DNA of 64,000 bases from Salvia splendens (lineage: Eukaryota > Streptophyta > Magnoliopsida > Lamiales > Lamiaceae): positions 22,056,063 to 22,120,062 of the forward strand of contig NC_056049.1 of the NCBI RefSeq assembly GCF_004379255.2, given 5' to 3'. Numbering within the stretch: the first letter of the stretch is position 1; every line of letters starts with the position of its first letter. The position numbers and the translations under genes were made by a program. The notes below the pieces were generated by a model, which was not told the origin of the DNA, did not search any database, and saw nothing but the letters and a program-made list of their open reading frames with translations. Shown piece by piece: positions 23,832-62,821 of this stretch.

Positions 23832-25114
23832 ATGAACAATTTGTAGAGAGACAACTGGAATGCTCTGATTCAACAGGTGCAACACCAGGCCGCCCAGGAG
23901 GTAGCGGCCCGTTTGGCGGAGGAGGCAGAGGATGCGGAGGATCCGATCCCTCGCACCATTACTCATCGGCGGACAATCCCACGAGATCACGTCGGTGCTC
24001 ACCAACGTTTAATGGATGATTACTTCGATCATAACCCCTGTTATCCACCCGAGATATTCCGTCGGAGATTCAGGATGTCACAGCGGCTGTTCAACTATAT
24101 AGCGACGAATTTGGCGGAGCGTTACCGGTGCTTCACCCTCCGGCGTGATGCGGCTGGCCGGATCGGGCTGTCCACACAACAGAAGTGCACCGCTGCAATC
24201 CGACAGCTTGCCTACGCTGGACCAGCGGACATGTTCGATGAATACCTACAGATGAGTGAGACGACTAGCCTCACGGTGCTTAGGCAGTTCTGTAAGGGGA
24301 TCCGGGAAATTTTCGGTGGGGAGTTTCTACGGAAGCCCAACCCGGATGAGTGTCAGCGCCTACTTGATATGCACGGGTCGGTGCACGGCTTCCCAGGAAT
24401 GTTAGGAAGCATCGATTGCATGCATTGGGAGTGGAGGAACTGCCCCGTGGCATGGAAAGGCCAGTTCACTACTGGATTCAAAAGCAAACATCCAACGATG
24501 ATACTGGAAGCCGTTGCGGACTACCGTCTGAAGATCTGGCATGCGTATTTCGGCGTGGCAGGTTCGAACAACGACATCAATGTTCTTCAGTCGTCGCCTC
24601 TCTTCAACGAGGAGTGCCGGGGGGAGGGACCAGAAATCAGCTTCGTAGCCAACGGCACGCAGTACAGTAGGGGATACTATTTGGCTGATGGAATATATCC
24701 GCGGTGGCCCGTATTCGTGAAGACTGTCCGCCAACCGGTAGGACCGAAGAAACAATATTTTGCGCGCAACACAAGAGAGTGCTAGGAAGGACGTTGAGCG
24801 GGCTTTTGGTGTCCTCCAATCGCGGTGGGCTATTATACGGTGTCCGGCACGAGTTTGGCACGAAGATGATGTCGCGAATATTATGTTAGCCTGTATCATA
24901 TTGCATAATATGATAATAGAAGATGAAGGATTTGCGGCAGAGCGATGGGCGCCGGAAGAGGGTGCAAGTACAAGTCACGGTGGGCGTACCACGGAGCAAT
25001 GAATATTTGATCCAACGCTTCGCTGATATGCGCAGGACCACATCACATAACACACTGCAGGCCGATTTGATTGAAGAAGTGTGGGCACGTAGGGGAGGTA
25101 GTAGCGTTGTGTAA
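23832..25114 (+). pseudogene. Harbinger transposase (DDE_Tnp_4 / Plant_tran family), broken
   Basis: This enzyme would cut and join transposon ends. From the ATG at 23832 the fifth codon is TAG (23844-23846). The frame then stays open to 24785 and includes the DNA-binding N-terminal part and two DDE aspartates, in GSIDCMHWEW and AGSNNDINVL. Around 24760-24780 the homology moves to another frame, which holds the third acidic residue in KDVERAFGVLQ and HNMI. Near 25000 it moves again to the frame encoding the C-terminal HNTLQADLIEEVW. One stop and two frameshifts make a functional product unlikely. Homology over all three pieces is to HARBI1-like plant transposases. Confidence 0.9.
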
Positions 25115-37354: not shown

Positions 37355-40303
37355 TCACTTGTTGAAAGTAAGATAACTGAAAAATGGCCTTTGAGGAACT
37401 GGTATAAGCTTCACAACCCAAGCAAGAGGCCAAGAAAGTGCCCCAATCCCAACACAAATCCCCCACTCTCCCAAATTCAGCCTCTCTGTATCAGCAAACT
37501 TATTCAACAACTCCACCATCACCACTTGAAGAACCACCGTCACTCCTACAATCCCCACAAACAACTTGTTCTTATGCAACCCTTCAAACACATTCCTCTT
37601 CTCAACCTTCCTCGCATTGAACTCATTAAACACCTGACACATCACAAACGCATTGAATATCAAAGTATTCTTCACCTTCTCACTCACCCCAAACAGACCC
37701 TCCCCTCCAAACTGCAGCACCAACAACACCCCAATCTGATACACAGCCTGTGCCATTAGATTCCTCCACATCACATTACTGATCAGCGCCTCGTGCCTCC
37801 CCACGGGCCGCTTCTCCATCAACTCCCTTGCCGGTCTCTCTGTGGCCAGCGCCAACGCCCCGAGAGTGTCCATGATCATATTCACCCACAGCAGCTGCAC
37901 CGCCGTCAGAGGCACCTCACCGGCCGAGATGGCCGCCACAAAGTTCACCGTCAACGCTGCTACATTCACCGTCAACTGGAACTGAATGAACTTCTGTATG
38001 TTGTTGTACACACACCTCCCCCATTTTAAAACTGTCACCACTGATGCGAAGTTGTCATCCATGATCACTATATCAGAGCTTTCTTTCGCCACCTCTGTGC
38101 CTTGGATCCCCATCGACAGGCCTATGTCGGCCTCTTTTAAGGCCGGTGCATCGTTCGTCCCGTCTCCCGTGACTGCCACCACATGGCCGAGCCTCTTCAA
38201 GCACTGCACCATGAGGAGCTTATCCAATGGGGAGGATCTTGCCATCACGCGGATGCCCTCGACCCTCTCCATCCGCTCCTCATCCGTGTACGATCGAAAC
38301 TCAGCTCCTTCAACTACACATCCGTCTTGGTCTTGACCCGGGAGGAGTATACCACACTCTGTAGCTATGGCCTTGGCCGTGAACACGTTGTCACCGGTGA
38401 TCATCTTCACATCAACACCGGCATACTGGCAATCTTCAACAGCCTTCTTCACACCGGGCCGGCATGGATCTTTTATCCCTACTAAACCTAGTAGAACCAT
38501 ACCATCTTCTTGAATTTTCTTCTCTGTTTCAAGATTCACCTCATCACTCTGTTTATGTGCAAATGCAATGCATCTTAGGCTAGAAGCAGCCATTCCTTGA
38601 ATAATATGATTGAATTGCAATCTCTCTTCATCATCCAAATCCTTTTTCTCACCTTCCAAATCATAGTAGTGTGAGCACATTGCAAGAATCATCTCAGCTG
38701 CTCCTTTCCAATGCACATGGAATTCATGATCTCTCTTCACCAAAACACCACTCCTCTTCTTCTCAGAATTGAATGCCTCCACATGAAGAATCTCACATCC
38801 CCTCTTCACCTCCTCCATATCCATCCCCATCTCCGCCACCGCCCACGACAGGATCGCCTTCTCAGTCGGGCTACCAGAGAATTCCACCCCTTCATCAGAC
38901 ATATACACACCACCCGTCGTGTTAAGCCCAACGCCCTCACGAAGCAGCTCAACAACACTCCTCCCAATATTCACTCCATCTTCAAAGGAGTCCTTCCCCA
39001 TCCAAAACTTCGTCACCATCATCTTATTCATAGTTAGCGTACCCGTCTTATCCGTGCAGATAGTAGTAGCAGAGCCCATGGTTTCGCAAGCCGAGAGCTT
39101 CCTCACCATGGATTGATCAGCCATCATCCTCTTCATCGAATACGCGAGAGTGAGAGTGACAGCAAGAGGCAAACCTTCCGGTATAGCAACCACAACAATC
39201 GTCACCGCAGCAGCAACAATCCCAACAACCGAATTAATCACATCATCCGCTTTAGTCCTTTTTCCATTAAACTCCCTCACCCCATTCTCATCCTCTGTAT
39301 TCCCCGTAAAATAACGAACCATCAACACGACAAGAACAAGAAACGCTACAGCCAAACCGAGCTTCCCAATCGAGGAAGTGAGCTTGTTGAGCCGCCTCTG
39401 CAGCGGCGTCTCCTCATCCGCATCATCCTTACTAATCCTGCTCATCATCTCCCCCCGCAGAGTGTCCATCCCAACACCCGTCACCACCATTTTCCCATAC
39501 CCGTCCGCCACCTTCGTACCGGAAAATAGAAAAGGATTGACGCAAATCTCGACATCCACAGTGTCGCTCTCACCGGTCATGCTAGACTCATCCACCTGCA
39601 GAGAGTGGCCTTCTATGAAAAGGCCGTCTGCAGGGACTTGATCTCCGATGTTTAAGCACACGACGTCGCCCACAACAACGTCGTATATTGACACCTCTTG
39701 CCTCCTTCCGCTTCTAACTACTTCAATTAAAACATTACTGCTTATTTTTGAGAGCTTATCAAACTGTCTGCTCTGTCTGAAGTTGCTGACGGAGGAGACG
39801 GAGATGACGAGGAACACCGCGACGAAGATGCTTCCGCCGTCGTACCAGCCATCCCTTATGCCGTGTTCTTTAATTCCGAAGCCGAGGGAGAGAGCGGCGC
39901 AGGCGAGTAAGATGAGGATGGTGGGATCTTTAAAGGCTTCTATTACAAAGTGGAGGAAGGATTTTGATGGGGGAAAGGGGTAGGTGTTGGTGCCGAAGGC
40001 TGTTTTTCGGGCTGCGAGGTCATGGTCGTCGCCGGTGATGCCGTGGAGGGGGTTCGTTTTGAGGGCGGCGGCGACGCCGTGGGGGCCTTTGAGGAGGGAG
40101 AGTTGGCGGAGGTTTTTGTCCTTGACGAGGTGGGGGAGGTGGTGGTCGACGACGACAGCGATGGCGGTGGTGGAGAGGAAGGCTCTGGAGCAGTAGATGG
40201 TGGCGAAGGCTTTGTGCCATTTTTTTTTGTTTGGATTTATGGAGGCATGAAAATGCATGGGATCATGCTGATGAAGCAGGAGCTCTGTTATGATTGCTGA
40301 CAT
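37355..40303 (-). CDS. Autoinhibited plasma-membrane Ca2+-ATPase (P2B type, ACA12/13-like)
   Basis: Pumps Ca2+ out of the cytosol using ATP. One uninterrupted 982-aa frame starts at the ATG at 40303; lack of introns is typical of the ACA12/ACA13 branch. The N-terminal ~70 residues are basic with hydrophobic anchors (KKKWHKAFATIYCSRAF), the position of the calmodulin-binding autoinhibitory region. Motifs in order: actuator TGES (243-246), membrane PEGL (375-378), phosphorylated Asp418 in DKTGT, nucleotide-binding KGAAE (533-537) and hinge TGDGTNDAP (712-720). Hydrophobic segments fall at ~125-145, 155-172, 315-332 and 355-385, plus a C-terminal group. The coding strand is GC-richer than its surroundings. 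A TATA box and two W-box cores lie upstream. A calmodulin-like gene lies 6.7 kb away. Confidence 0.96.
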   Translation of the reverse strand: MSAIITELLLHQHDPMHFHASINPNKKKWHKAFATIYCSRAFLSTTAIAVVVDHHLPHLVKDKNLRQLSLLKGPHGVAAALKTNPLHGITGDDHDLAARKTAFGTNTYPFPPSKSFLHFVIEAFKDPTILILLACAALSLGFGIKEHGIRDGWYDGGSIFVAVFLVISVSSVSNFRQSRQFDKLSKISSNVLIEVVRSGRRQEVSIYDVVVGDVVCLNIGDQVPADGLFIEGHSLQVDESSMTGESDTVDVEICVNPFLFSGTKVADGYGKMVVTGVGMDTLRGEMMSRISKDDADEETPLQRRLNKLTSSIGKLGLAVAFLVLVVLMVRYFTGNTEDENGVREFNGKRTKADDVINSVVGIVAAAVTIVVVAIPEGLPLAVTLTLAYSMKRMMADQSMVRKLSACETMGSATTICTDKTGTLTMNKMMVTKFWMGKDSFEDGVNIGRSVVELLREGVGLNTTGGVYMSDEGVEFSGSPTEKAILSWAVAEMGMDMEEVKRGCEILHVEAFNSEKKRSGVLVKRDHEFHVHWKGAAEMILAMCSHYYDLEGEKKDLDDEERLQFNHIIQGMAASSLRCIAFAHKQSDEVNLETEKKIQEDGMVLLGLVGIKDPCRPGVKKAVEDCQYAGVDVKMITGDNVFTAKAIATECGILLPGQDQDGCVVEGAEFRSYTDEERMERVEGIRVMARSSPLDKLLMVQCLKRLGHVVAVTGDGTNDAPALKEADIGLSMGIQGTEVAKESSDIVIMDDNFASVVTVLKWGRCVYNNIQKFIQFQLTVNVAALTVNFVAAISAGEVPLTAVQLLWVNMIMDTLGALALATERPARELMEKRPVGRHEALISNVMWRNLMAQAVYQIGVLLVLQFGGEGLFGVSEKVKNTLIFNAFVMCQVFNEFNARKVEKRNVFEGLHKNKLFVGIVGVTVVLQVVMVELLNKFADTERLNLGEWGICVGIGALSWPLAWVVKLIPVPQRPFFSYLTFNK

Positions 40304-40386
40304 ATTAGTATTTTGTCCTTTTTTGCAATGGGAATTGGAAATTGTTTAAGGTTTGTGAATGAGTTGGGAGGTGTAGATATGTAATG

Positions 40387-51538: not shown

Positions 51539-51543
51539 AGAGC

Positions 51544-52140
51544 TGATGGGGTACGAACTAAACCCTAATGGCAAGCCCAATAACAGTGACGGCCCATCAG
51601 CCCAGAGCCCAAGAAAGAGTATCTGTTCGGCACCAAAGAGTTCGGCACGACCAAAGAGTTCGGACTCAGCCTACAGCTCGGTAAAAGCCGACCAGTCAAG
51701 CTCTCCTCTCAGATCGGCAAGAGCTGATCGGTAAAGTCCAGCAGTTCGGTCTCAGCATTCGACCGAACTAGGAGTTAGTGGACTCATGAAAGGCCTCCAC
51801 GACCTCCACTATACCCACGATCTATTTAGTGGTACGAAGCAGTTATTGAGCAGTTATTGCTCACCCACGATCTTGTTAGTGGGGCTGCAAACCACGATCC
51901 TAGTTCAATGTATAAATAGGACTTAGATCAGATAGACAGGGTTAAGCTCTCTAGAGATAAAACATCATATAGCAAGTCTGTGTTGTAAGCTGTAATCCCA
52001 GATCAAGCAATACAATCTTGCCCTCCCTTCTTCCCGTGGACGTAGATTTACTTCAGTAAATCGAACCACGTAAATTCTTGGTGTCGTAGTCTTTATTCTC
52101 TACCAGCATTTACTAACATCAAAAATTCGCGGATCCATCA
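51544..52140 (+). repeat. 5' LTR
   Basis: It starts TGATGGGGTACG and ends GCGGATCCATCA. TATAAATAGG near 51911 is the likely TATA box of the genomic transcript. A GTAAATTC...GTTAC-like tail and polyA-region motifs were not resolved further. Confidence 0.95.
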
Positions 52141-52141
52141 C

Positions 52142-52159
52142 TGGCGCCGTCTGTGGGAA
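52142..52159 (+). promoter_or_regulatory. Primer-binding site
   Basis: TGGCGCCGTCTGTGGGAA lies one base after the 5' LTR. Its first nine bases are complementary to a tRNA 3' end AC-GGCGCCA, the end of plant tRNA-Asp, but the rest departs from tRNA-Asp, so the priming tRNA is not assigned. The sequence is familiar from other plant Tat elements. Confidence 0.75.
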
Positions 52160-52216: not shown

Positions 52217-53902
52217 ATGCATACCAGATCGCAGAGTACCCGTATTCCTGCCCGTGAGAACCAGGAGGGAGCCAATCCATCCCATAGGTCTGGAAAACAG
52301 CCTAGGGATAAATCCACCACCAGTTCTCATGGCGAAGGAACAAGCCGCTCCAAAAATCGTCCCACTGAGTCTTCCCAGCAGCCCGATTTGAATGAGGCTG
52401 TCAAGCAGTTTTTGGCGGCGAAGCAGGAGGAATTCTTAACCTTCCTGCAAAAAAGCCAAAAGCAGCCGGAGACGAAAACGGCGGATTCTCCTTCTCCCTC
52501 CGCACAAGAAAGTCACTACCGCAGTAGTGTCGCATCTCCCAGGAGAAAGAATCCCCGTCCCCAACATGTTCCAGTTCCTCCTCGGTACCGGAATCACAGG
52601 AGAACTCAATCTCCTCCATACCGACGAGATATCGGATTCGCCGTGTACGGAGCACTGAAGACTCCGTTCTCGGACGACATCACCCGAACTCCCCTACCAC
52701 AGAACTACCGAACTCCGTCGATGACTTACGACGGGCTCGTGGACCCTCACGATTTCTTGGGGCGCTATCAATATAACATGGCGAACCAGGGTCTCAACGA
52801 GGTCCACATGTGCAAGCTGTTTCCCGAGCTGCTCATCGGGAACGCGAGAAGGTGGTTCGATAGCCTCCCCCAGGGCAGCATCAGATCTTACCGAGATCTA
52901 ATGGATGCCTTCCACAGGAGGTTCTTTCAGAAAGCGGAAGCCCGAATCACTTCGGCTCAGCTGCTTTCCATTCGTCAAGGTCGCGACGAAAAAATCAGCG
53001 ACTTTATGACAAGATTCCACAAGGAATGCCTGCAAGTAGACGATCTCAACGATCTGCTTGTCATCTCGGCATTCCAAAATGGAATCCTGCCCGGAGCTCT
53101 CTACAGGAAGCTCGTTGAGTGCGGTCCGCAGACAGCTCAGGAAATGTGGGACATTGCGGACCAGTACTCCCGGGCCGATGAGGCAGACCGTCGCAAACGG
53201 TCGTTAGACAGCTCATCGACCCGAGGAGACAGAAGGAAGCCCGATCATAGCGATCAGGGGCATCCTCGCCGGACTCCATTTGAAAGAATTCAAAGGGCTC
53301 CGGTGCAAGACAGATTGGGACCTCGTCTCAATCCCGAGAAGCCGCCCGCTCAGTTCGTACCGCTGAACAAGCCGAGAGCGGAAATTTTCGAACTGCACTC
53401 TGACCTATTCGAAAAGCCAAAGCGGATGACGAAATCAGCCGCGCGCCGACCACAGGATAGCTACTGCTCCTACCATCAAGACCACGGTCACGATACTGAG
53501 GAGTGCAGAAACTTGGCTGCAGGTATCGATGTTCTTGTGAAGGCAGGGACATTGAAAAAATACCAAAGCAAGCAGCCAAAGAAGAATAAAAAGCAGAGTG
53601 GTGCGAACTGCGCTCCTCAGGATCCGAAAAAGCAGCCGGATCCCGAAGACGATGACGAGCCGCAATATGATGGAGTAATCCAGACTATTGACGCGCTCCC
53701 TGCCGGGAAGACCAAGTCGTCCCTAAAGTCAGAGCGCAGAGGCTCCAATCGAGAGGAGCCAACGCATAAAAGGCTGAAGCAGGACGAAGTGATTACGTTC
53801 TCGGCTGCTGATCTCTCCTCACCAAGACGCCATTGTCATCCAAGCCGGAGTGGCAAACAAACTGATCCACAGGGTGTTTGTGGATACAGGAGCGTCGGTT
53901 AG
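52217..53902 (+). CDS. gag: Retrotransposon Gag
   Basis: Forms the virus-like particle. 561 codons from the ATG at 52217, the first ATG after the primer site. The N-terminal ~150 residues are basic and Pro/Ser-rich. The Retrotrans_gag core runs from about residue 170 (YDGLVDPHDFLGRYQYNM) through ARRWFDSLPQGSI and FHRRFFQ to about 330. A CCHC-like knuckle YCSYHQDHGHDTEEC follows near 415. Near the end the conserved ITFSAADLSS motif is reached, and then family homology continues in another frame (protease, from about 53814). The last ~28 codons in the gag frame therefore look like frame-shadow. Confidence 0.92.
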   Translation: MHTRSQSTRIPARENQEGANPSHRSGKQPRDKSTTSSHGEGTSRSKNRPTESSQQPDLNEAVKQFLAAKQEEFLTFLQKSQKQPETKTADSPSPSAQESHYRSSVASPRRKNPRPQHVPVPPRYRNHRRTQSPPYRRDIGFAVYGALKTPFSDDITRTPLPQNYRTPSMTYDGLVDPHDFLGRYQYNMANQGLNEVHMCKLFPELLIGNARRWFDSLPQGSIRSYRDLMDAFHRRFFQKAEARITSAQLLSIRQGRDEKISDFMTRFHKECLQVDDLNDLLVISAFQNGILPGALYRKLVECGPQTAQEMWDIADQYSRADEADRRKRSLDSSSTRGDRRKPDHSDQGHPRRTPFERIQRAPVQDRLGPRLNPEKPPAQFVPLNKPRAEIFELHSDLFEKPKRMTKSAARRPQDSYCSYHQDHGHDTEECRNLAAGIDVLVKAGTLKKYQSKQPKKNKKQSGANCAPQDPKKQPDPEDDDEPQYDGVIQTIDALPAGKTKSSLKSERRGSNREEPTHKRLKQDEVITFSAADLSSPRRHCHPSRSGKQTDPQGVCGYRSVG

Positions 53903-54287
53903 CATTCTTTTTAAAGAGTGCTTTGACAAACTAGAAGTGGACCCAGCTCGGCTCAGTCCGGCTCCGCTTCCCCTAAAGAGCTTCGCCCAGGAGGACACCC
54001 GCCCTGAAGGTATTATCAGCCTTCCGATCACGGTGGGGAAAGCGCCTACTAGCTCCAGTACGATGATTGAGTTTTTCGTGGTGAAAGCTCGGTCCCCGTA
54101 CAACATCATCCTGGGAAGAGACTGGCTCAACACAGTTCGGGCCGTTTGCTCCACTTATCACCTCACCATCAAGATCCCTACTAAAGGAGGGATAGCGGTC
54201 ATCCGAGGTGACCAAAAGAGAGCAAAGGAATGTCTGCAAATTGCGCTTAGAAGTGCCGAGCAGTCAGATCGGCACCACCAAGCATAG
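53793..54287 (+). CDS. pro: Retrotransposon aspartic protease, out of frame with gag
   Basis: Cleaves the polyprotein. The frame is open from 53793 (after TGA at 53790-53792) to TAG at 54285-54287. It has no convincing ATG of its own, so it probably depends on gag translation. The active site is FVDTGAS with the flap and ILGRDWL following, as in plant Ty3/gypsy proteases. Relative to gag it lies in the +1 frame; the conserved join between DLS and PHQDA falls at about 53813-53820 in the run CTCTCCTCACC. The terminating TAG is followed in frame by pol without another stop. Confidence 0.85.
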   Translation, partial: LRSRLLISPHQDAIVIQAGVANKLIHRVFVDTGASVSILFKECFDKLEVDPARLSPAPLPLKSFAQEDTRPEGIISLPITVGKAPTSSSTMIEFFVVKARSPYNIILGRDWLNTVRAVCSTYHLTIKIPTKGGIAVIRGDQKRAKECLQIALRSAEQSDRHHQA

Positions 54288-57200
54288 CAATCACAGCAGC
54301 CGGAGTCAGAGGCGATGACCGCAGTCATACCGGAGCCGAACTCGATGACAGTTCAGCTGTACGAAGACGATCCATCCAGAACGGTTAAGATCGGCTTCGC
54401 GGGAACGCCCCTACTTCGGGAAAAAACCATCCAGCTCCTCAAGGAGTATAAAGACGTCTTTGCATGGTCTCCGTTGGACATGACCGGAGTGCCCCCCGAG
54501 GTAATCACTCATCGGTTAAATATTGATCCTTCAGTCCGGCCGATAAAACAGAAGCAAAGACTCTTTGCGGCAGAACGAAGTCAAGTCATCCATGACGAAG
54601 TCCGTCAATTATTGAAGGCGGATGTGTTATTCGAAGTGAAGTATCCTTCGTGGGTGGCCAATCCTGTCATGATCAAGAAAAAGGAAGGAGGATGGCGGAT
54701 GTGCATAGATTTCACCGATCTAAATAAGCACTGTCCCAAAGATTGCTATCCCCTTCCGAACATAGATAAAAAAGTAGAAGCTTTGATAGGCTTTGAAATT
54801 TTTTGTTTTCTTGATCTGTACAAAGGATACCATCAAGTTTTAATGGATGAGATTGACGCTTCAAAAACGGCCTTCATTACTGATTTCGGCATTTTCGCTT
54901 ATAAAAAGATGCCATTCGGTTTAAAGAATGCCGGAGCCACTTATCAAAGGATGGTAGACAAGCTTTTTCGGCACCTGATTGGAAAGGAGGTCGAAGTGTA
55001 TGTTGACGATATAGTCGTCAAAAGCAAAAGCACTTCGGAGTACGAGCACAACCTCAAGTCCACTCTCAACGTGCTCAAGAAAGCCAACCTCAAACTTAAT
55101 CCCCAAAAGTGTACCTTTTTGGTAGATTCGGGAAAGTTCCTGGGTTGTTGGGTTTCAAAGGACGGACTCAAGGCAAACCCCTCAAAAGTTCAAGTCGTTC
55201 AGAACATGGCAATGCCGAAGTCCATACATGACGTGCAAAGGCTAACCGGATGTCTAGCCGCACTGAATCGATTCCTTTCCCAAGCAGCCGAAAAGCAACT
55301 GCCGTTCTTCAAGGTGTTGAAAAAGGCACCAAAGTTCGAGTGGGGAGCCGAGCAGAAAAAGGCCTTTGACGAGCTCAAAAGTTATCTAGCCGAGCTTCCT
55401 ATTCTCTCTGCTCCAACCGAAGCCGAAGTAATATTCTTATACTTAGCGGCATCGGATCAAACCATCAGCGCGGTGCTTGTACGAGAAGAAGGCCTAAAGC
55501 AGCTTCCCATCTATTTTACAAGCCGAGCATTAAGAGGTCCAGAAACCAGGTATCAACCTCTGGAAAAGATTGCTCTGGCATTAGTAAATGCAGCAAGGAG
55601 ACTGCGGCCATACTTCTATGCTCACAAGGTATGCGTCTTAACTGATCTGCCACTTCGGCAAGTGTTGACCAAACCAGAAGCATCAGGCAGAATCGCCAAG
55701 TGGGCTATAGAGTTGGGAGAGCACACAATTGAATATCTACCTCGGAAAGCCATCAAGGGACAAGCCTTGGCAGATTTTCTTGCAGAAGCAAAGTTCGATC
55801 AAGCAATTCCTGTTATTGCCGAACAGAAGAATTCTGCCAATGCCGAACTAGCACAGCCCTTGGAATCCGAAGTAGAGCCGCCGGACTGCTGGAGCGGATT
55901 CGTAGATGGAGCTTCAAACAAGATGGGAAGTGGAGCTGGTATTTTACTTGTCGCTCCCGACGGACACGAGGTAACCTACTCACTTCGGTTCCTATTCCCC
56001 ACTACTAATAATGAAGCCGAGTACGAAGCCCTCCTGGCCGGACTCCAGTTAGCGCAAAGTCTGCTCGTCAAATCTCTCAAAGTCCATTGTGATTCACAAG
56101 TCATAGTAAATCACATGTTGGGTACAAGTGAAGCTCGTGACGAGAGAATGAAGAAGTATTTGGACAAAGCGCAAAGCATCAGCCGAAGTTTCTCCTATTT
56201 TCGGATAATCCGCATTCCCAGAGCGGAAAATAGCCGAGCAGATACCTTAAGTAAGTTGGCCTCAGATCCGAACTCAAAGGCGGAAGAATTAATGCATCGA
56301 AGCATTGATGAAGCCGAGGTACATTCAGTATCCAGCTCGCCGAACTGGATGACGCCGATCTTGCAGTATCTGGATCAAGGACTATTGCCCGAGGATAAGA
56401 GAGAAGCTCGGAAGATCACGTGCCGAGCACTTCGGTACGAACTTCATGAAGGAGTCCTCTTTAGAAAGTCTTACCTCCAGCCGTTATTGCGGTGCGTAGG
56501 ACCAGAAGAGACAGACTACATCCTCAGAGAAGTTCATGAAGGATCGTGCGGTAGCCACATCGGAGCCAGAGCTTTAGCTAAAAAAGTTCTGAGATGGGGA
56601 TATTATTGGCCAACCATGGTACAAGAGGCAGTGCAGCTCGTCAAGAAGTGTACGAAGTGCCAAATTCATGCAAATGTCCCAAGGATGCCGCAGACCGATC
56701 TATACACTATGCAAAGCCCTTGGCCTTTCATGCAATGGGGCATAGACATAGTGGGACCACTTCCTCAAGCTCCTCGGCAGATGAAATTCCTTATCGTTGC
56801 CGTGGACTACTTCACGAAGTGGGTGGAGGCTGAACCATTAGCTACGATAACGAGCTCAAAGGCATTGGACTTCGTCTGGAAGAACATAGTGTGCCGATTT
56901 GGCATACCCCACATCCTCATCTCGGATAATGGGACTCAGTTCACCGACAAGACGTTCAAGAATTGGTGCCAAGAGCTGAACATTCAACAGCGGTTCACTT
57001 CGGTCTCCCATCCCCAAGCAAACGGACAAACGGAAGTAACGAACCGGATTCTGGTGAAAGGGTTAAAAGCTCGGTTAGAACAAGCCAAAGGACAATGGGT
57101 AGAAAATCTCCCTCAAGTCCTATGGTCCTACCGAACTACGCCCAAAACCTCCAACGGTGAAACTCCGTATAGTCTGGTGTACGGCACTGAAGCCGTAATT

Positions 57201-57578
57201 CCGGTGGAGATCGGCGTACCCAGTCCCCGAACTCTAAATTTCTCCTCAGAAATGAATGACGACGGACTGAGAGCAGAACTAGATCTCGCCGAAGAAAGAA
57301 GAGAATTGGCTTGCATAAAAGCAGCCAAGTATAAGGAGCAAGTAGCCCGGTATTATAACCAAAGGGTGAAAAAGCTTCAATTTCAAGTGGGAGATCTCGT
57401 CTTGAGAAACAACGAAGTAAGCCGAGCAGAAAAGCTGGGCAAACTCGAACCCACATGGGAGGGTCCATATCGGGTGTCAGAAGTCCTCGGCAAAGGGTCT
57501 TATAAATTGACTCACATGACAGGAGAACAAGTACCCCGAACATGGCACGTCTCCAACCTCAAGAAGTTCCACTTGTAA
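54288..57578 (+). CDS. pol: Retrotransposon Pol: RT, RNase H, second RNase H, integrase
   Basis: In the same frame as protease directly after its TAG; the first ATG is at 54315, numbered 1 here. RT: Asp167 in FLDLYKG and YVDD at 229-232. RNase H 1 (~372-490) is degenerate at its first motif (LAASDQTISAVL). A second, plant/archaeal-type RNase H (~526-650) keeps Asp531 (FVDGAS), Glu569 (NNEAEYEAL), Asp593 (HCDSQ) and Asp643 (SRAD). Integrase: zinc ligands His741, His747, Cys779 and Cys782; catalytic Asp811, Asp871 and Glu907; C-terminal WEGPYRV module. 1087 codons without a break, so the enzyme set looks intact. Confidence 0.96.
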   Translation, partial: QSQQPESEAMTAVIPEPNSMTVQLYEDDPSRTVKIGFAGTPLLREKTIQLLKEYKDVFAWSPLDMTGVPPEVITHRLNIDPSVRPIKQKQRLFAAERSQVIHDEVRQLLKADVLFEVKYPSWVANPVMIKKKEGGWRMCIDFTDLNKHCPKDCYPLPNIDKKVEALIGFEIFCFLDLYKGYHQVLMDEIDASKTAFITDFGIFAYKKMPFGLKNAGATYQRMVDKLFRHLIGKEVEVYVDDIVVKSKSTSEYEHNLKSTLNVLKKANLKLNPQKCTFLVDSGKFLGCWVSKDGLKANPSKVQVVQNMAMPKSIHDVQRLTGCLAALNRFLSQAAEKQLPFFKVLKKAPKFEWGAEQKKAFDELKSYLAELPILSAPTEAEVIFLYLAASDQTISAVLVREEGLKQLPIYFTSRALRGPETRYQPLEKIALALVNAARRLRPYFYAHKVCVLTDLPLRQVLTKPEASGRIAKWAIELGEHTIEYLPRKAIKGQALADFLAEAKFDQAIPVIAEQKNSANAELAQPLESEVEPPDCWSGFVDGASNKMGSGAGILLVAPDGHEVTYSLRFLFPTTNNEAEYEALLAGLQLAQSLLVKSLKVHCDSQVIVNHMLGTSEARDERMKKYLDKAQSISRSFSYFRIIRIPRAENSRADTLSKLASDPNSKAEELMHRSIDEAEVHSVSSSPNWMTPILQYLDQGLLPEDKREARKITCRALRYELHEGVLFRKSYLQPLLRCVGPEETDYILREVHEGSCGSHIGARALAKKVLRWGYYWPTMVQEAVQLVKKCTKCQIHANVPRMPQTDLYTMQSPWPFMQWGIDIVGPLPQAPRQMKFLIVAVDYFTKWVEAEPLATITSSKALDFVWKNIVCRFGIPHILISDNGTQFTDKTFKNWCQELNIQQRFTSVSHPQANGQTEVTNRILVKGLKARLEQAKGQWVENLPQVLWSYRTTPKTSNGETPYSLVYGTEAVIPVEIGVPSPRTLNFSSEMNDDGLRAELDLAEERRELACIKAAKYKEQVARYYNQRVKKLQFQVGDLVLRNNEVSRAEKLGKLEPTWEGPYRVSEVLGKGSYKLTHMTGEQVPRTWHVSNLKKFHL

Positions 57579-58085: not shown

Positions 58086-58316
58086 AGGGAAAGTCCGATC
58101 CACGCGATAAACCTCGCCGAATTAGGACGACCAAGTTCGGTCAAAGAAGTTTACCTCATAAGACCGGGGACGACCACGTCTAGTCAAAGAGGTTTACTGC
58201 ATAAGACCACTTCGGTTAACTGGGAAAGTCCGATCCACGCGATAAAACTCGCCGAATTAGGACAAGGGAAAGTTCGATCCCGGCGACAAAAATCGCCAAA
58301 TTAGAACACAAACCAA

Positions 58317-58706
58317 GTTCGGTCAAAGATGTTTATTTCATCAGACCAAAGACGAGTCCGGTCAAAGATGTTTATTTCATCAGACCAAAGACGAGTCCGG
58401 TCAAAGATGTTTATTTCATCAGACCAAAGACGAGTCCGGTCAAAGATGTTTATTTCATCAGACCAAAGACGAGTCCGGTCAAAGATGTTTATTTCATCAG
58501 ACCAAAGACGAGTCCGGTCAAAGATGTTTATTTCATCAGACCAAAGACGAGTCCGGTCAAAGATGTTTATTTCATCAGACCAAAGACGAGTCCGGTCAAA
58601 GATGTTTATTTCATCAGACCAAGGACCAAGTCCGGTCAAAGAAGTTTACTTCATAAGACCAAGGACCAAGTCCGGTCAAAGAAGTTTACTTCATAAGACC
58701 GAGGAC
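58317..58706 (+). repeat. 39-bp minisatellite inside the retrotransposon
   Basis: Eight nearly identical 39-bp copies beginning GTCCGGTCAAAGATGTTTAT and including TTCATCAGACCAAAGACGA are followed by two diverged copies with GAAGTTTACTTCATAAGACC. The unit length is a multiple of three, so reading frames run through it on both strands, but the products are simple 13-residue repeats and not credible proteins. Confidence 0.93.
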
Positions 58707-58841: not shown

Positions 58842-59629
58842 CTACTGTCCAGGGTTGCTGAAGTTAAGCCACCTATCTGCAAAATCCTCTGGAAGCCGAG
58901 TTCGGTTGTTCCGAGCAGATGAAGAATAAGCAGGTCGACGAGATGCTATCCTCGACCCAACACCTCTTCCGCGAGCCCCAGAAGCTCTAACCCCTCGGCG
59001 ATGAAGAGTCTCTGCAATAAGCATCTGCTGATCTTGCTGGCTCATAGTCACAACTCCTCGGCGAATTTCAGTCCGTCCCTGTCTTGACGATTCCGGATGC
59101 TCCTGAGCCCGTTCTCGTCTTGACGTTTCCGGCTGTTCCGGAGTTCGTTGTTGACTTGGAGTAGGATTTTGAACAAGGGAACCAGAGGCTTGATCTGGAG
59201 TGCGAGCATCTGTTGACGGGAAATGCCTAAGGAATCTCCCGATTGAGGGACGCCGGGAAAGAATGATGTCGTACCGAGAAGCCCAGCGCCGCAATGATTT
59301 CACAACTTGTTGGCAAGCCGAGCTCTCCAGCGCATTTTCCTCCGGAGTACATGATATTCCTCCCACAGTTCGTCAACTCGACTCTGAACATCTGATATGG
59401 TCACTCCCCCGCGCACACGGATGTAATCCTCGTACGCAGTCCTCTCTGCAATGGTCGTATTCAGCTCGGCCTCCAGATCCTTCTTATCGGACTCTAAGTC
59501 CTTATTATCGGCCTCCAGCTTCACTAAACGAGCCAGAAGCTCGTCATTCTTCGTCTGATCGGCTATAGCTCTTTTCTCAGCTTCGTCTAAAGCCGAAGAG
59601 TACAGCCGTTTCCAGTGAAGTATCTCCAT
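58842..59629 (-). CDS. Distal part of the antisense gene region
   Basis: On the minus strand 59629-59300 encodes a heptad-rich coiled coil (LEADNKDLESDKKDLEAELN). A second frame, 59366-58842, continues with QQVVKSLRRWASRYDIILSR and a Ser/Gln/Arg-rich tail. The two frames overlap near 59300-59366, so either a frameshift mutation or another splice joins them. An AG acceptor-like site precedes 59629, so this may be a further exon of the antisense gene. The product's role is unknown. Confidence 0.5.
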
Positions 59630-59830
59630 CTCCTTGAGTACAAAGCAGCTATATTAGTTCGGCAGCTGTACCGAGCAGATAGTAAAATACAACAGGAATA
59701 AAGGCGAGTACGAAAAGCTATACGAAGACAAGTGTAGAGAATTTTTCATTCACAAGGAAAATTTTTACACTAGGAGGGCTTCAAGGCCATTTTACAAGGA
59801 AGAAACTAGACTAAGAGAAGGGAGACGAAA

Positions 59831-61693
59831 TCATACTCCGCCAGCTTCGTCTCCGGCTCCTTGGTCTGGTTCAGCTTCTTTCTCCTGAGCTACCTCAGCC
59901 TCGGCCTCGCATCCTGCCGGCCTCGCCTCCGCCTCCTGATCGGCTTCCTTCTCCGGATGCCCGGCCCGCTCGACTTCGGCCTCCAGCTCCAGCGACTCGG
60001 CCTCACCCTCTCCGTTGTAAGTCGAAGCGGGTGAAACGGGTCCCACGGAGGCAAAGATAGCCTCCAGGTTCTCGTCCCGATCAGCTCGACAACTCCGGAC
60101 TCGGTCTGCAGAAAGCAGGACCGAGGATGAAGCGAGCTCCTCAAGGAGCGGCAGATTCTGAAGCCGAGCTGCTATCTCTCGGCTGTACAGAGGCAGCACG
60201 ACGTCGGCCCCCTGCTCGCCCTTATCGGTAATTAGCCTTACCAGACTACCGACAAAGGCCGAGAACTGGCTGCTCAAAAAGAGTTTCTCCGTGTAAACAC
60301 GGAGAGCCTCCCCCTGGGCAGCCACGGCGGCAGCCTCCTTCTGAGCCTCCCGGTGCTTCGTCTGCTCTTGCAGGATGATGAGCTGGTTTTTGGCTGACCG
60401 GGCTTCATCCTGAGCCGAGATCCTAGCAGCTCAGGCCCTCTCAAATTTGGCCTCAGCCTGTTCGGCCAGACTACGAGCAAGATGCAACTTCTTCTGCATC
60501 TCCTCGTAGTCGTGGGATGCTTTGGAGAGCTCCACGGAGACGAACTTGGCTCTCTGAAGATGAACAAGGAAAAAACTCAACAGAACGGCCATCAAAAAAT
60601 ATGGAAAAGAAGCCAAGTCAGAAAGCTTACCTCCACAAAATTCGTCGGCCATTGAAAAGGCTCAGGGACGTGTTCCGGGATGTCTGCAACCACCTCGGAG
60701 ATGACCAGGTCTTTCCCCGGCACTCTTGGGGACTCATGAAGTTTCCCCTTCCCTTTAGCCGAACACGGCTCCGGCTCTTTCGGATCCGAAGAAGAGGTTC
60801 TTTGCCTCTTCGGATTCTTCTCGGCTTCAGACGCCGAGCGAGGGGCTCTCTGCCTCTCCGGCTCCACAAGCTCGGAGGACTTTCGGATAGCCTTGTTCAG
60901 CATGTACACTGCCAAAAAGCAAGAAAGCAAGGTTAGTTTTCTTCGTTAAAGCAGTAGAGCATAAAGATAAAGAGAAATCCTCACCCTCGGCCTCTTCGTC
61001 CGAAGACGAGATGTCGAACACGACGTCGCCCTTGACGAGCTCAGACTCCGTGTATTGTTTCCTAACTATGGGAATCTTGTTGAGCTCGCCATCGAGCTCG
61101 TCCAACGGTTCAGGCCGAGGATGACGGATAACGGACTTCGGCCCTCTCCAGGGAAAACTAGGAGCCGCGGTCCTATCATAGTAGAAGAAGCGGTTTTGCC
61201 ACTTCGGCCACTTCGTTTTACAAAAGGCCCTAAAGGGCTGTACAGGGATCAAGTAAAACCAAGACCCCTTCCTCTTAAATTGAAAGAATTTAAGGATCGC
61301 CTTCAAAGACAAATCCCTTCCTAACCTACGGAGTTCGGCAGCGAAGGCCGACAAGTGCCTCCAAGAGTTCGGAGTCACCTGGCCTAAAGGAAGCTGAAAA
61401 AAATCTAGTAAATCTATAAAGGCAGAAGGGAGGGGGAAACGAAGCCCGCATTCTAAGCTGGCCTCGTACACGGTGGCGTAACCCTCCGGCGGGGAGTCAG
61501 CCCTATGATCACCGTCAGGTACCACCGCCTTCCCCCCAGGAAAAAAGTATTTTTCGGGTAGGGATATCACAGTATCCTTACTCAAAATGCTATGGAAATA
61601 CTCTACGGTCTTCTCCCCGGACTCTCTCCGGCCAGAAGACCCCTTACCGCCTCTCCTACCGCTACCCGACTCCGAAGAAGAAGAAGAAGACAT
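59831..61693 (-). CDS. Antisense gene of the Tat element (PF04195-type domain), spliced, with internal stop
   Basis: Read on the minus strand from the ATG at 61693. Three exons fit: 61693-60985, 60908-60631 and from 60553, with GT-AG borders that keep frame. After a Ser-rich start, residues ~60-200 resemble the 'putative gypsy type transposon' domain (CGLRFPLPSAFIDLLDFFQL, GQVTPNSWRHL, RRLGRDLSLKAILKFFQFK, FCKTKWPKWQNRFF). Basic and acidic Ser-rich stretches follow, then a long coiled-coil-like helix. The third exon has TGA at 60431-60433, after which the same frame stays open to 59831 with an acidic Ala/Glu-rich tail. Antisense ORFs at this place are known in Tat elements and their function is unknown. 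The internal stop may truncate this copy's product. Confidence 0.72.
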
Positions 61694-61816
61694 TTTTCTT
61701 ACTTTTTGAAGGTGAAGAAAGTCTGAAGAAGCTCTTGAAAGCGGAAGAAAATTTCTCGAGAAAGAGAGAGTATAGAAGACGCAACAGCAAAAGTGTTCAA
61801 ATGAGGAAGAAAGAGC

Positions 61817-61824
61817 ATATTTAT
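61817..61824 (-). promoter_or_regulatory. Possible TATA box of the antisense gene
   Basis: The minus strand reads CTGATAAATATGC, with ATAAATAT about 124 bases before the ATG at 61693. It would give the antisense gene its own promoter, independent of the LTR. Motif evidence only. Confidence 0.4.
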
Positions 61825-62015
61825 CAGATTCGGGAAAGATTTCGAAATCGTTGCGCTGTTTCGAATCCCACCTTTTCAGGATTCAACGGCCGGATTTTAC
61901 TGTCGCATTTAATGCAGGCACGCGCAAGGCACGTCCCCTGACGTCAGCCTCCCCCTTACCGTTATCCAGAATGCCGAAGTGACTCACCTCGCCGAAGTGA
62001 TTCACTTCGCTTTTC

Positions 62016-62028: not shown

Positions 62029-62625
62029 TGATGGGGTACGAACTAAACCCTAATGGCAAGCCCAATAACAGTGACGGCCCATCAGCCCAGAGCCCAAGAA
62101 AGAGTATCTGTTCGGCACCAAAGAGTTCGGCACGACCAAAGAGTTCGGACTCAGCCTACAGCTCGGTAAAAGCCGACCAGTCAAGCTCTCCTCTCAGATC
62201 GGCAAGAGCTGATCGGTAAAGTCCAGCAGTTCGGTCTCAGCATTCGACCGAACTAGGAGTTAGTGGACTCATGAAAGGCCTCCACGACCTCCACTATACC
62301 CACGATCTATTTAGTGGTACGAAGCAGTTATTGAGCAGTTATTGCTCACCCACGATCTTGTTAGTGGGGCTGCAAACCACGATCCTAGTTCAATGTATAA
62401 ATAGGACTTAGATCAGATAGACAGGGTTAAGCTCTCTAGAGATAAAACATCATATAGCAAGTCTGTGTTGTAAGCTGTAATCCCAGATCAAGCAATACAA
62501 TCTTGCCCTCCCTTCTTCCCGTGGACGTAGATTTACTTCAGTAAATCGAACCACGTAAATTCTTGGTGTCGTAGTCTTTATTCTCTACCAGCATTTACTA
62601 ACATCAAAAATTCGCGGATCCATCA
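62029..62625 (+). repeat. 3' LTR
   Basis: It has the same length and, read base by base, the same sequence as the 5' LTR at 51544-52140. It ends CCATCA and is followed by the AGAGC target duplication. Confidence 0.96.
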
Positions 62626-62821
62626 AGAGCCATATAAATAATTAATATAAACAGCTTTGAGCTTTGGGAACTGCGATAAACCTTTTTATTCCAAAAAAAC
62701 ACGATTGTTAACAAATTAATACTACTCCTGTAATCCATCCACAATTCCACATAGCCAGTTTAATTTCCTCTTCAATAATTTAGGAATCGATCCCTTCATT
62801 AAATTATGATTTTTCATATTA

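What the first reader, a model, noticed from the sequence alone, without database searches (positions are those of the whole stretch)
54270..54320. In-frame TAG between protease and RT sits in a TMV-type readthrough context
The only stop between the protease and reverse transcriptase frames is TAG at 54285-54287, followed by CAA TCA. This matches the CARYYA consensus of tobamovirus-type leaky UAG codons. Pol has no good independent start. The element inserted very recently (identical LTRs) and all pol catalytic residues are intact, so the stop may be a working device that sets the ratio of protease to RT products. Readthrough at this junction would be an unusual expression strategy for a plant Ty3/gypsy element.
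Basis: partly seen in the sequence, partly recalled or inferred. Interest (0 to 1): 0.8.

Follow-up and report, generated by a model that had tools for sequence, protein, structure and literature searches.

The report
Leaky-looking stop in a sage retrotransposon
A mobile element present in thousands of copies in the scarlet sage genome carries a stop signal in the middle of its protein-coding stretch, in a setting that plant viruses use to let some ribosomes pass, and the pattern of evolution suggests the element works this way rather than being broken.

Summary
The in-frame TAG at 54285-54287, followed by CAA TCA, is the only stop between the protease and reverse transcriptase frames of a Retand-like (Ty3/gypsy, Tat) element of Salvia splendens with identical 597-bp LTRs. 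It is not private decay: the exact junction occurs 888 times, and 888 again with the TAG codon left free. In three searches that ignore the junction (150 best matches each, overlapping) most rows keep a pol frame of 1096 or 1098 codons, the length set by this stop; one frame of 1809 runs across it. Four subfamilies, up to about 10% apart, share TAG-CAA-TCA-CAG-CA. Both frames are under purifying selection. Most listed relatives in other plants have protease and RT in one protein, so the stop is probably derived. Best reading: programmed type I (tobamovirus-like) readthrough, giving Gag-Pro and a minority of Gag-Pro-Pol. A stem 12 nt downstream is only a lead. Readthrough was not measured. The rice relative RIRE2 is cited as an earlier candidate: a new variant of a known kind.

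The parts
51539..51543 (.). target-site duplication, left (AGAGC)
51544..52140 (+). 5' LTR, 597 bp, identical to the 3' LTR
52142..52159 (+). probable primer binding site TGGCGCCGTCTGTGGGAA
   Evidence: position just inside the LTR; tRNA type not tested
52217..53902 (+). gag frame in this copy; its last part is out of frame because of the deletion
   Evidence: PF03732 E 6.3e-17; first ATG 52217
53804..53811 (+). site of a private 14-nt deletion that separates the gag and protease frames in this copy
   Evidence: absent from the 69 other copies examined
53793..54284 (+). aspartic protease frame (DTG at FVDTGAS)
   Evidence: PF13975 E 1.6e-5, below its curated cut-off
54285..54287 (+). in-frame TAG, the proposed leaky stop
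54288..54293 (+). CAATCA, match to type I readthrough consensus CARYYA
   Evidence: consensus from passages of PMC3542737 and PMC5382211
54300..54313 (+). 5' arm of a predicted stem beginning 12 nt after TAG
   Evidence: suggestive only
54407..54419 (+). 3' arm of the predicted stem
   Evidence: suggestive only
54315..54317 (+). conserved ATG after the stop, rival start of pol
54288..57578 (+). pol frame: RT, RNase H, archaeal-type RNase H, integrase
58238..58704 (+). 39-bp tandem repeat array between pol and 3' LTR
60830..61882 (-). antisense ORF with Transposase_28 (TRP28) domain
   Evidence: PF04195 E 3.7e-11
62029..62625 (+). 3' LTR
62626..62630 (.). target-site duplication, right (AGAGC)

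Best explanation
The TAG is a programmed, partly suppressed stop of the tobamovirus type I kind. Most ribosomes end at TAG and make Gag-Pro. A minority (inferred from TMV, of the order of 5-10%) decode UAG with a near-cognate tRNA, helped by the CAAUCA that follows, and make Gag-Pro-Pol, so that structural protein is in excess over RT and integrase. Shown here: position, context, near-fixation in the family, purifying selection on both sides, and mostly single-protein organisation in the listed relatives. Inferred: readthrough itself, its rate, and its role in the Gag to Pol ratio. A stem starting 12 nt downstream may help; that is only suggestive.
For: Motif match with chance about 0.2-0.3% per site. 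888 of 888 exact-flank junctions are TAG. Junction-independent searches (best 150 rows each, hand counts): pol frame of 1096 codons in 123, and of 1096 or 1098 in 103 and 116 rows, the length set by this stop; one of the 450 overlapping rows has an open frame of 1809 that runs across the junction, and the four longest frames (1183, 1164, 1107, 1107) still have TAG. TAG-CAA-TCA in 41 of 41 and 30 of 30 loci chosen with the junction and in 17 of 19 chosen without it, across four subfamilies. Fixed differences between two subfamilies: pol 8 non-synonymous to 58 synonymous, gag-pro 24 to 71; variants shared by 5 or more of 69 copies: pol 25 to 120, gag-pro 51 to 143. 50 of 69 copies have both frames open across the fetched piece with TAG between. 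No strong splice donor near the junction; 21 ATGs between the 5' LTR and TAG.
Against: No expression, ribosome-profiling or peptide data. The motif is only 9 nt and the copies are young: in the exact-flank set the CAA codon varies in only 1 of 889 places, so fixation alone says nothing about constraint. Sense-codon copies exist: 2 of 19 junctions read. The stem shows no compensatory change (0 of 13 pairs) and does not beat shuffles; in the window copy 168 of 1727 codon positions have a duplex as good and 13 of 70 windows fold as well as the one right after the stop. The conserved ATG after the stop leaves reinitiation open.
Confidence: 0.7

Rival explanations
1. Pol is made separately: ribosomes that end at TAG reinitiate at the ATG 9-11 codons downstream, or enter internally, and Pol is not fused to Gag-Pro.
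For: ATG with G at -3 lies 9 or 11 codons after TAG in 69 of 69 copies and is kept in all 18 distinct junctions.
Against: 21 ATGs precede TAG after the 5' LTR; reinitiation after a very long ORF is rare in plants (recalled). Protease and RT lie in that order in one protein in 105 of 120 listed relatives. It does not explain the CARYYA match.
Confidence: 0.13
2. The TAG copies are non-autonomous and were spread in trans by a rare master with a sense codon at this site.
For: Non-autonomous Retand clusters exist: 10 of 63 clusters lack a domain (PMC11963269, section 11 part 1). A few sense-codon copies exist (2 of 19 junctions; one 1809-codon frame in the 450 rows).
Against: Pol downstream of TAG stays intact in most rows and is under purifying selection between TAG-bearing subfamilies. 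The two sense-codon copies read are 98.8-99.3% identical over about 750 bases to the TAG copies compared with them, so they look like later single changes.
Confidence: 0.1
3. Ogre-like splicing removes a short segment with the TAG from some transcripts.
For: Ogre, another Tat clade, separates GAG-PROT from RT-RH-INT by an intron spliced in a subset of transcripts (PMC6317226 passages).
Against: No non-coding interval between the frames; a single AG-GTR donor-like site and no GTRAGT-like site in 54151-54420, and at most 5 T in the 15 bases before each acceptor-like YAG. Changes in the protease frame between the window and L009 are mostly at third positions (2, 3 and 29).
Confidence: 0.05
4. A stop by chance in a decaying family, without function.
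For: Young copies share recent ancestors, so one early change would be found in nearly all.
Against: Low non-synonymous to synonymous ratios on both sides after the split of TAG-bearing subfamilies; a family of about 3,000 junctions; rare motif.
Confidence: 0.02

Closest known systems
Type I (tobamovirus) readthrough signal, UAG-CAR-YYA
   Same: UAG, 3' CAAUCA fits CARYYA, A just before the stop; plant host; polymerase-bearing extension downstream
   Different: UCA where TMV has UUA; in a retrotransposon, between Gag-Pro and Pol; a possible extra 3' stem; activity not measured
Gammaretrovirus gag-UAG-pol readthrough (MuLV)
   Same: in-frame UAG before RT; would set Gag to Gag-Pol ratio
   Different: MuLV is type III, UAG-G with a compact pseudoknot; here protease lies upstream of the stop and the context is type I
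RIRE2 (rice, Retand lineage)
   Same: plant Ty3/gypsy element cited as a readthrough candidate (PMC2754532 passage)
   Different: original paper (Ohtsubo 1999) not held, so stop, place and context could not be compared
SIRE1 (soybean, Ty1/copia)
   Same: stop suppression in a plant LTR element with a TMV-like context (recalled: Havecker and Voytas 2003, not read)
   Different: there the stop lies between pol and an env-like gene, and in Ty1/copia (recalled)
Ogre elements (Tat clade)
   Different: Ogre frames are on average 274 bp apart, an intron in two species tested; here the frames touch
Retand cluster 'Salvia splendens 1' (Vicient 2025, PMC11963269)
   Same: same host, LTR 597 bp, internal region 9,719 bp against 9,888 here, TRP28, one tandem array (table read)
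   Different: identity inferred from sizes only; the parts read do not mention an in-frame stop

Membership tests
Retand lineage (Ty3/gypsy, Tat) | second, archaeal-type RNase H between RNase H and integrase | tested here: met
   RVT_3 at residues 539-657 between RT_RNaseH (382-477) and Integrase_H2C2 (739-794); reading RVT_3 as the archaeal type is recalled; placement from PMC6317226, shared with Ogre
Retand lineage (Ty3/gypsy, Tat) | antisense ORF with Transposase_28 between pol and 3' LTR | tested here: met
   PF04195 in 60830-61882 minus strand; feature from PMC11963269
Retand lineage (Ty3/gypsy, Tat) | place in an RT phylogeny | not tested
   no lineage tree was built; only homologue lists
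Type I readthrough signal | UAG followed by CARYYA | tested here: met
   GCA TAG CAA TCA
Type I readthrough signal | open frame continues in register and is under coding constraint | tested here: met
Type I readthrough signal | measured readthrough above background | not testable with these tools
   needs a reporter assay or ribosome profiling
Readthrough sites with an extended 3' stem | stem starting about 8 nt or a little more after the stop, supported by compensatory changes | tested here: inconclusive
   outer 7 bp kept in 18 of 18 distinct sequences with 2 pair positions changed on one side; no double-sided change; shuffles as good. Spacing of about 8 nt from PMC5382211 passage; Firth 2011 not held
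Gammaretrovirus-like type III | UAG followed by G or purines | tested here: not met
   C follows the stop
Ogre-like intron | non-coding interval with splice sites between the frames | tested here: not met
   frames are adjacent; no strong donor; splicing itself not tested

The most novel reading that the evidence does not exclude
A plant retrotransposon lineage moved from one continuous Gag-Pro-Pol protein to a plant-virus-style readthrough switch, combining the type I hexanucleotide with an extended 3' stem, and then spread to about 3,000 junction-bearing copies: convergence with gammaretroviruses on the same Gag to Gag-Pol control.
Probability: 0.35. Interest if true: 0.75.

Novelty: new variant of a known kind. 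Interest (0 to 1): 0.62.

Why it matters
How single-ORF plant Ty3/gypsy elements obtain excess Gag over Pol is an open question (recalled). A large, young family with a type I leaky-looking stop gives a directly testable case, and it means that in-frame stops in retrotransposons should not always be scored as decay in annotation pipelines.

Tried and rejected
Decay: rejected, since the stop is in nearly all copies examined and pol is constrained. Frameshift between gag and protease as a second recoding site: looked possible from the window alone, rejected because the overlap comes from a 14-bp deletion private to this copy. The 888 of 888 TAG count as proof of selection: rejected after the control with the next codon freed gave 889. 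Covariation of the 3' stem: not supported. Relatives in IMG/VR: no match. Gag-pro proteins of other plants ending at the same place: 394 candidates, none scored, so this gives no information. The papers of Gao 2003, Steinbauerova 2008, Ohtsubo 1999 and Firth 2011 are not held. Other Retand families of the same genome: two queries from other plants (Fagus, Daucus) again filled their 150 rows with what looks like the TAG family, so no other family of this host could be compared. I had first written that 109 of 120 relatives have protease and RT fused; the recount by order gives 105, with 4 that hold both parts in another arrangement.

Full report
What was checked. The TAG at 54285-54287 is real, in frame with both neighbours and followed by CAATCA. 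The element around it has 597-bp LTRs identical to each other, a 5-bp target duplication, gag, protease, a 1096-codon pol with RT, RNase H, a second (archaeal-type) RNase H and integrase in that order, an antisense Transposase_28 ORF and a 39-bp tandem array between pol and the 3' LTR. By the features given in PMC6317226 (passages) and PMC11963269 (abstract, passages and section 11 part 1) this is a Retand element of the Tat clade; no RT tree was built.

Host. A calcium ATPase ORF in the window is 100% identical to a Salvia splendens protein. The contig of its 94% relative (28,571,943 bases) has the length of contig C17 of the window's genome. Assembly size (807.7 Mb against 805.9) and the longest scaffold (47.13 Mb, as C1) also agree with PMC8408255 (passages). 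The element is probably the cluster 'Salvia splendens 1' of Vicient 2025 (LTR 597 bp); this rests on sizes only.

The copy in the window is broken. Of 70 copies compared over 120 bases around the place, it alone lacks 14 nt near 53804-53811, which puts gag and protease in different frames. Of the 69 others, 50 have gag-pro and pol both open across the fetched piece (3.4-3.6 kb; L009, which fails, 7 kb), with TAG between; 19 have at least one of the two interrupted.

Is the stop private? No. All 41 loci of the first set (the window's own included) and all 30 of the second (L009's own place included) carry GCA TAG CAA TCA, but these were chosen with the junction in the query. Counts with less bias: with the codon left free and 24 flanking bases fixed there are 888 places, and 888 with TAG fixed; with two mismatches allowed, 3,088, of which the codon was seen only for the first 100 listed, all TAG. 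Three protein queries lying wholly inside pol each returned the 150 best of more than 11,000 candidates. By hand count the open frame is 1096 in 123 rows, 1096 or 1098 in 103, and 1096 or 1098 in 116; a further 6, 5 and 9 lie between 1062 and 1183; 21, 41 and 25 are below 1050; one is 1809, which runs across the junction. The lists overlap, and a frame length shows the stop only indirectly; the four longest frames were therefore read and have TAG. Of 20 further junctions fetched, picked for unusual scores or frame lengths and including the 1809 row, 19 cover the site: 17 have TAG, 2 a sense codon, and one (L078) does not align there. The two sense copies are 98.8-99.3% identical to the TAG copies compared with them.

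Does that mean constraint? Not by itself: freeing the neighbouring CAA codon gives 889 places against 888, so these copies are too young to show a contrast. The argument is instead that the coding frames on both sides kept evolving as proteins while the stop was present. Between the two best sampled subfamilies (39 and 30 copies) fixed differences are 8 non-synonymous to 58 synonymous in pol and 24 to 71 in gag-pro. With the site counts this is about 0.04 and 0.11 (my arithmetic, uncorrected). Variants shared by five or more copies give 25 to 120 and 51 to 143; singletons give 71 to 56 and 50 to 60, a weaker bias as expected of copies no longer under selection. Two more subfamilies (grouped by eye), about 90-92% identical to the window over the junction, keep TAG-CAA-TCA-CAG-CA apart from the two sense copies.

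Is the stop ancestral? In 105 of 120 listed homologues from other plants protease and RT lie in that order in one protein, with a linker of varying length and sequence; 4 more hold both parts in another arrangement and 11 lack a protease match. These are gene models, which avoid stops, and the 120 are the best of 5,680, so this is an indication. PMC11963269 reports one ORF for gag and pol in 37 clusters (59%; 83% in eudicots) and two in the rest.

Mechanism. UAG followed by CARYYA is the type I signal of tobamoviruses (PMC3542737 and PMC5382211, passages); TMV readthrough in stable transgenic plants was estimated at 6-10%, higher in transient tests (PMC2754532, passages). In-frame CARYYA is found at 5 of 1786 codon pairs of this element and after 4 of 1642 TAGs in the window. 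So readthrough giving Gag-Pro and some Gag-Pro-Pol is the best reading. Splicing lacks good sites. Reinitiation at the conserved ATG is the main rival, weakened by 21 upstream ATGs and by the fused proteins of relatives.

The 3' stem. All nine representatives folded begin a stem exactly 12 nt after UAG, pairing with bases about 100 nt away. In one copy of subfamily B (L068) and one of C (L074) the site and its immediate neighbours give the best duplexes of 1133 and 183 codon positions; in D (L087) eight other positions of 183 are as good; in the window copy 168 of 1727, in L009 135 of 2266, in L018 122 of 1066 and in L047 100 of 1133 are as good. Folds of the 150 nt after the stop have z-scores near -2. 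Among 70 windows along the element 54300-54449 has the lowest energy, but 13 are as low as the one right after the stop. Pair counts on 18 distinct sequences show 93.6% of cells paired (37-56% when the arms are slid), no compensatory change, and no gain over shuffles. I treat it as a lead.

Literature. Searches of the held library listed no title or abstract on readthrough in this family; that covers open-licence papers only, and only the top of each listing was seen. RIRE2 is the nearest earlier candidate, seen only as a citation. SIRE1 and the Gao survey are recalled, not read.

Noticed in passing
53804-53811: Private 14-bp deletion in an otherwise very young copy, breaking gag-protease
   Followed up: yes
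1-1650: 3' part of a second copy (its gag-pro and early pol are in L009, in the flanking DNA), about 93% identical, of another subfamily of the same element
   Followed up: yes
58238-58704: 39-bp tandem repeat array (spacing 39 throughout, inner copies 99% alike) between pol and the 3' LTR; tandem arrays occur in about half of the Retand elements of PMC11963269
   Followed up: no
59303-60430, minus strand: Further antisense open frames without a convincing domain beside the Transposase_28 ORF
   Followed up: partly
23847-24785: 312-codon open frame that looks like a plant nuclease-type transposase (recalled resemblance, no search run)
   Followed up: no
37355-40345, minus strand: Calcium ATPase gene in one open frame; a 94% identical Salvia splendens protein lies on a contig with the length of C17, fitting the tetraploid host
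   Followed up: partly
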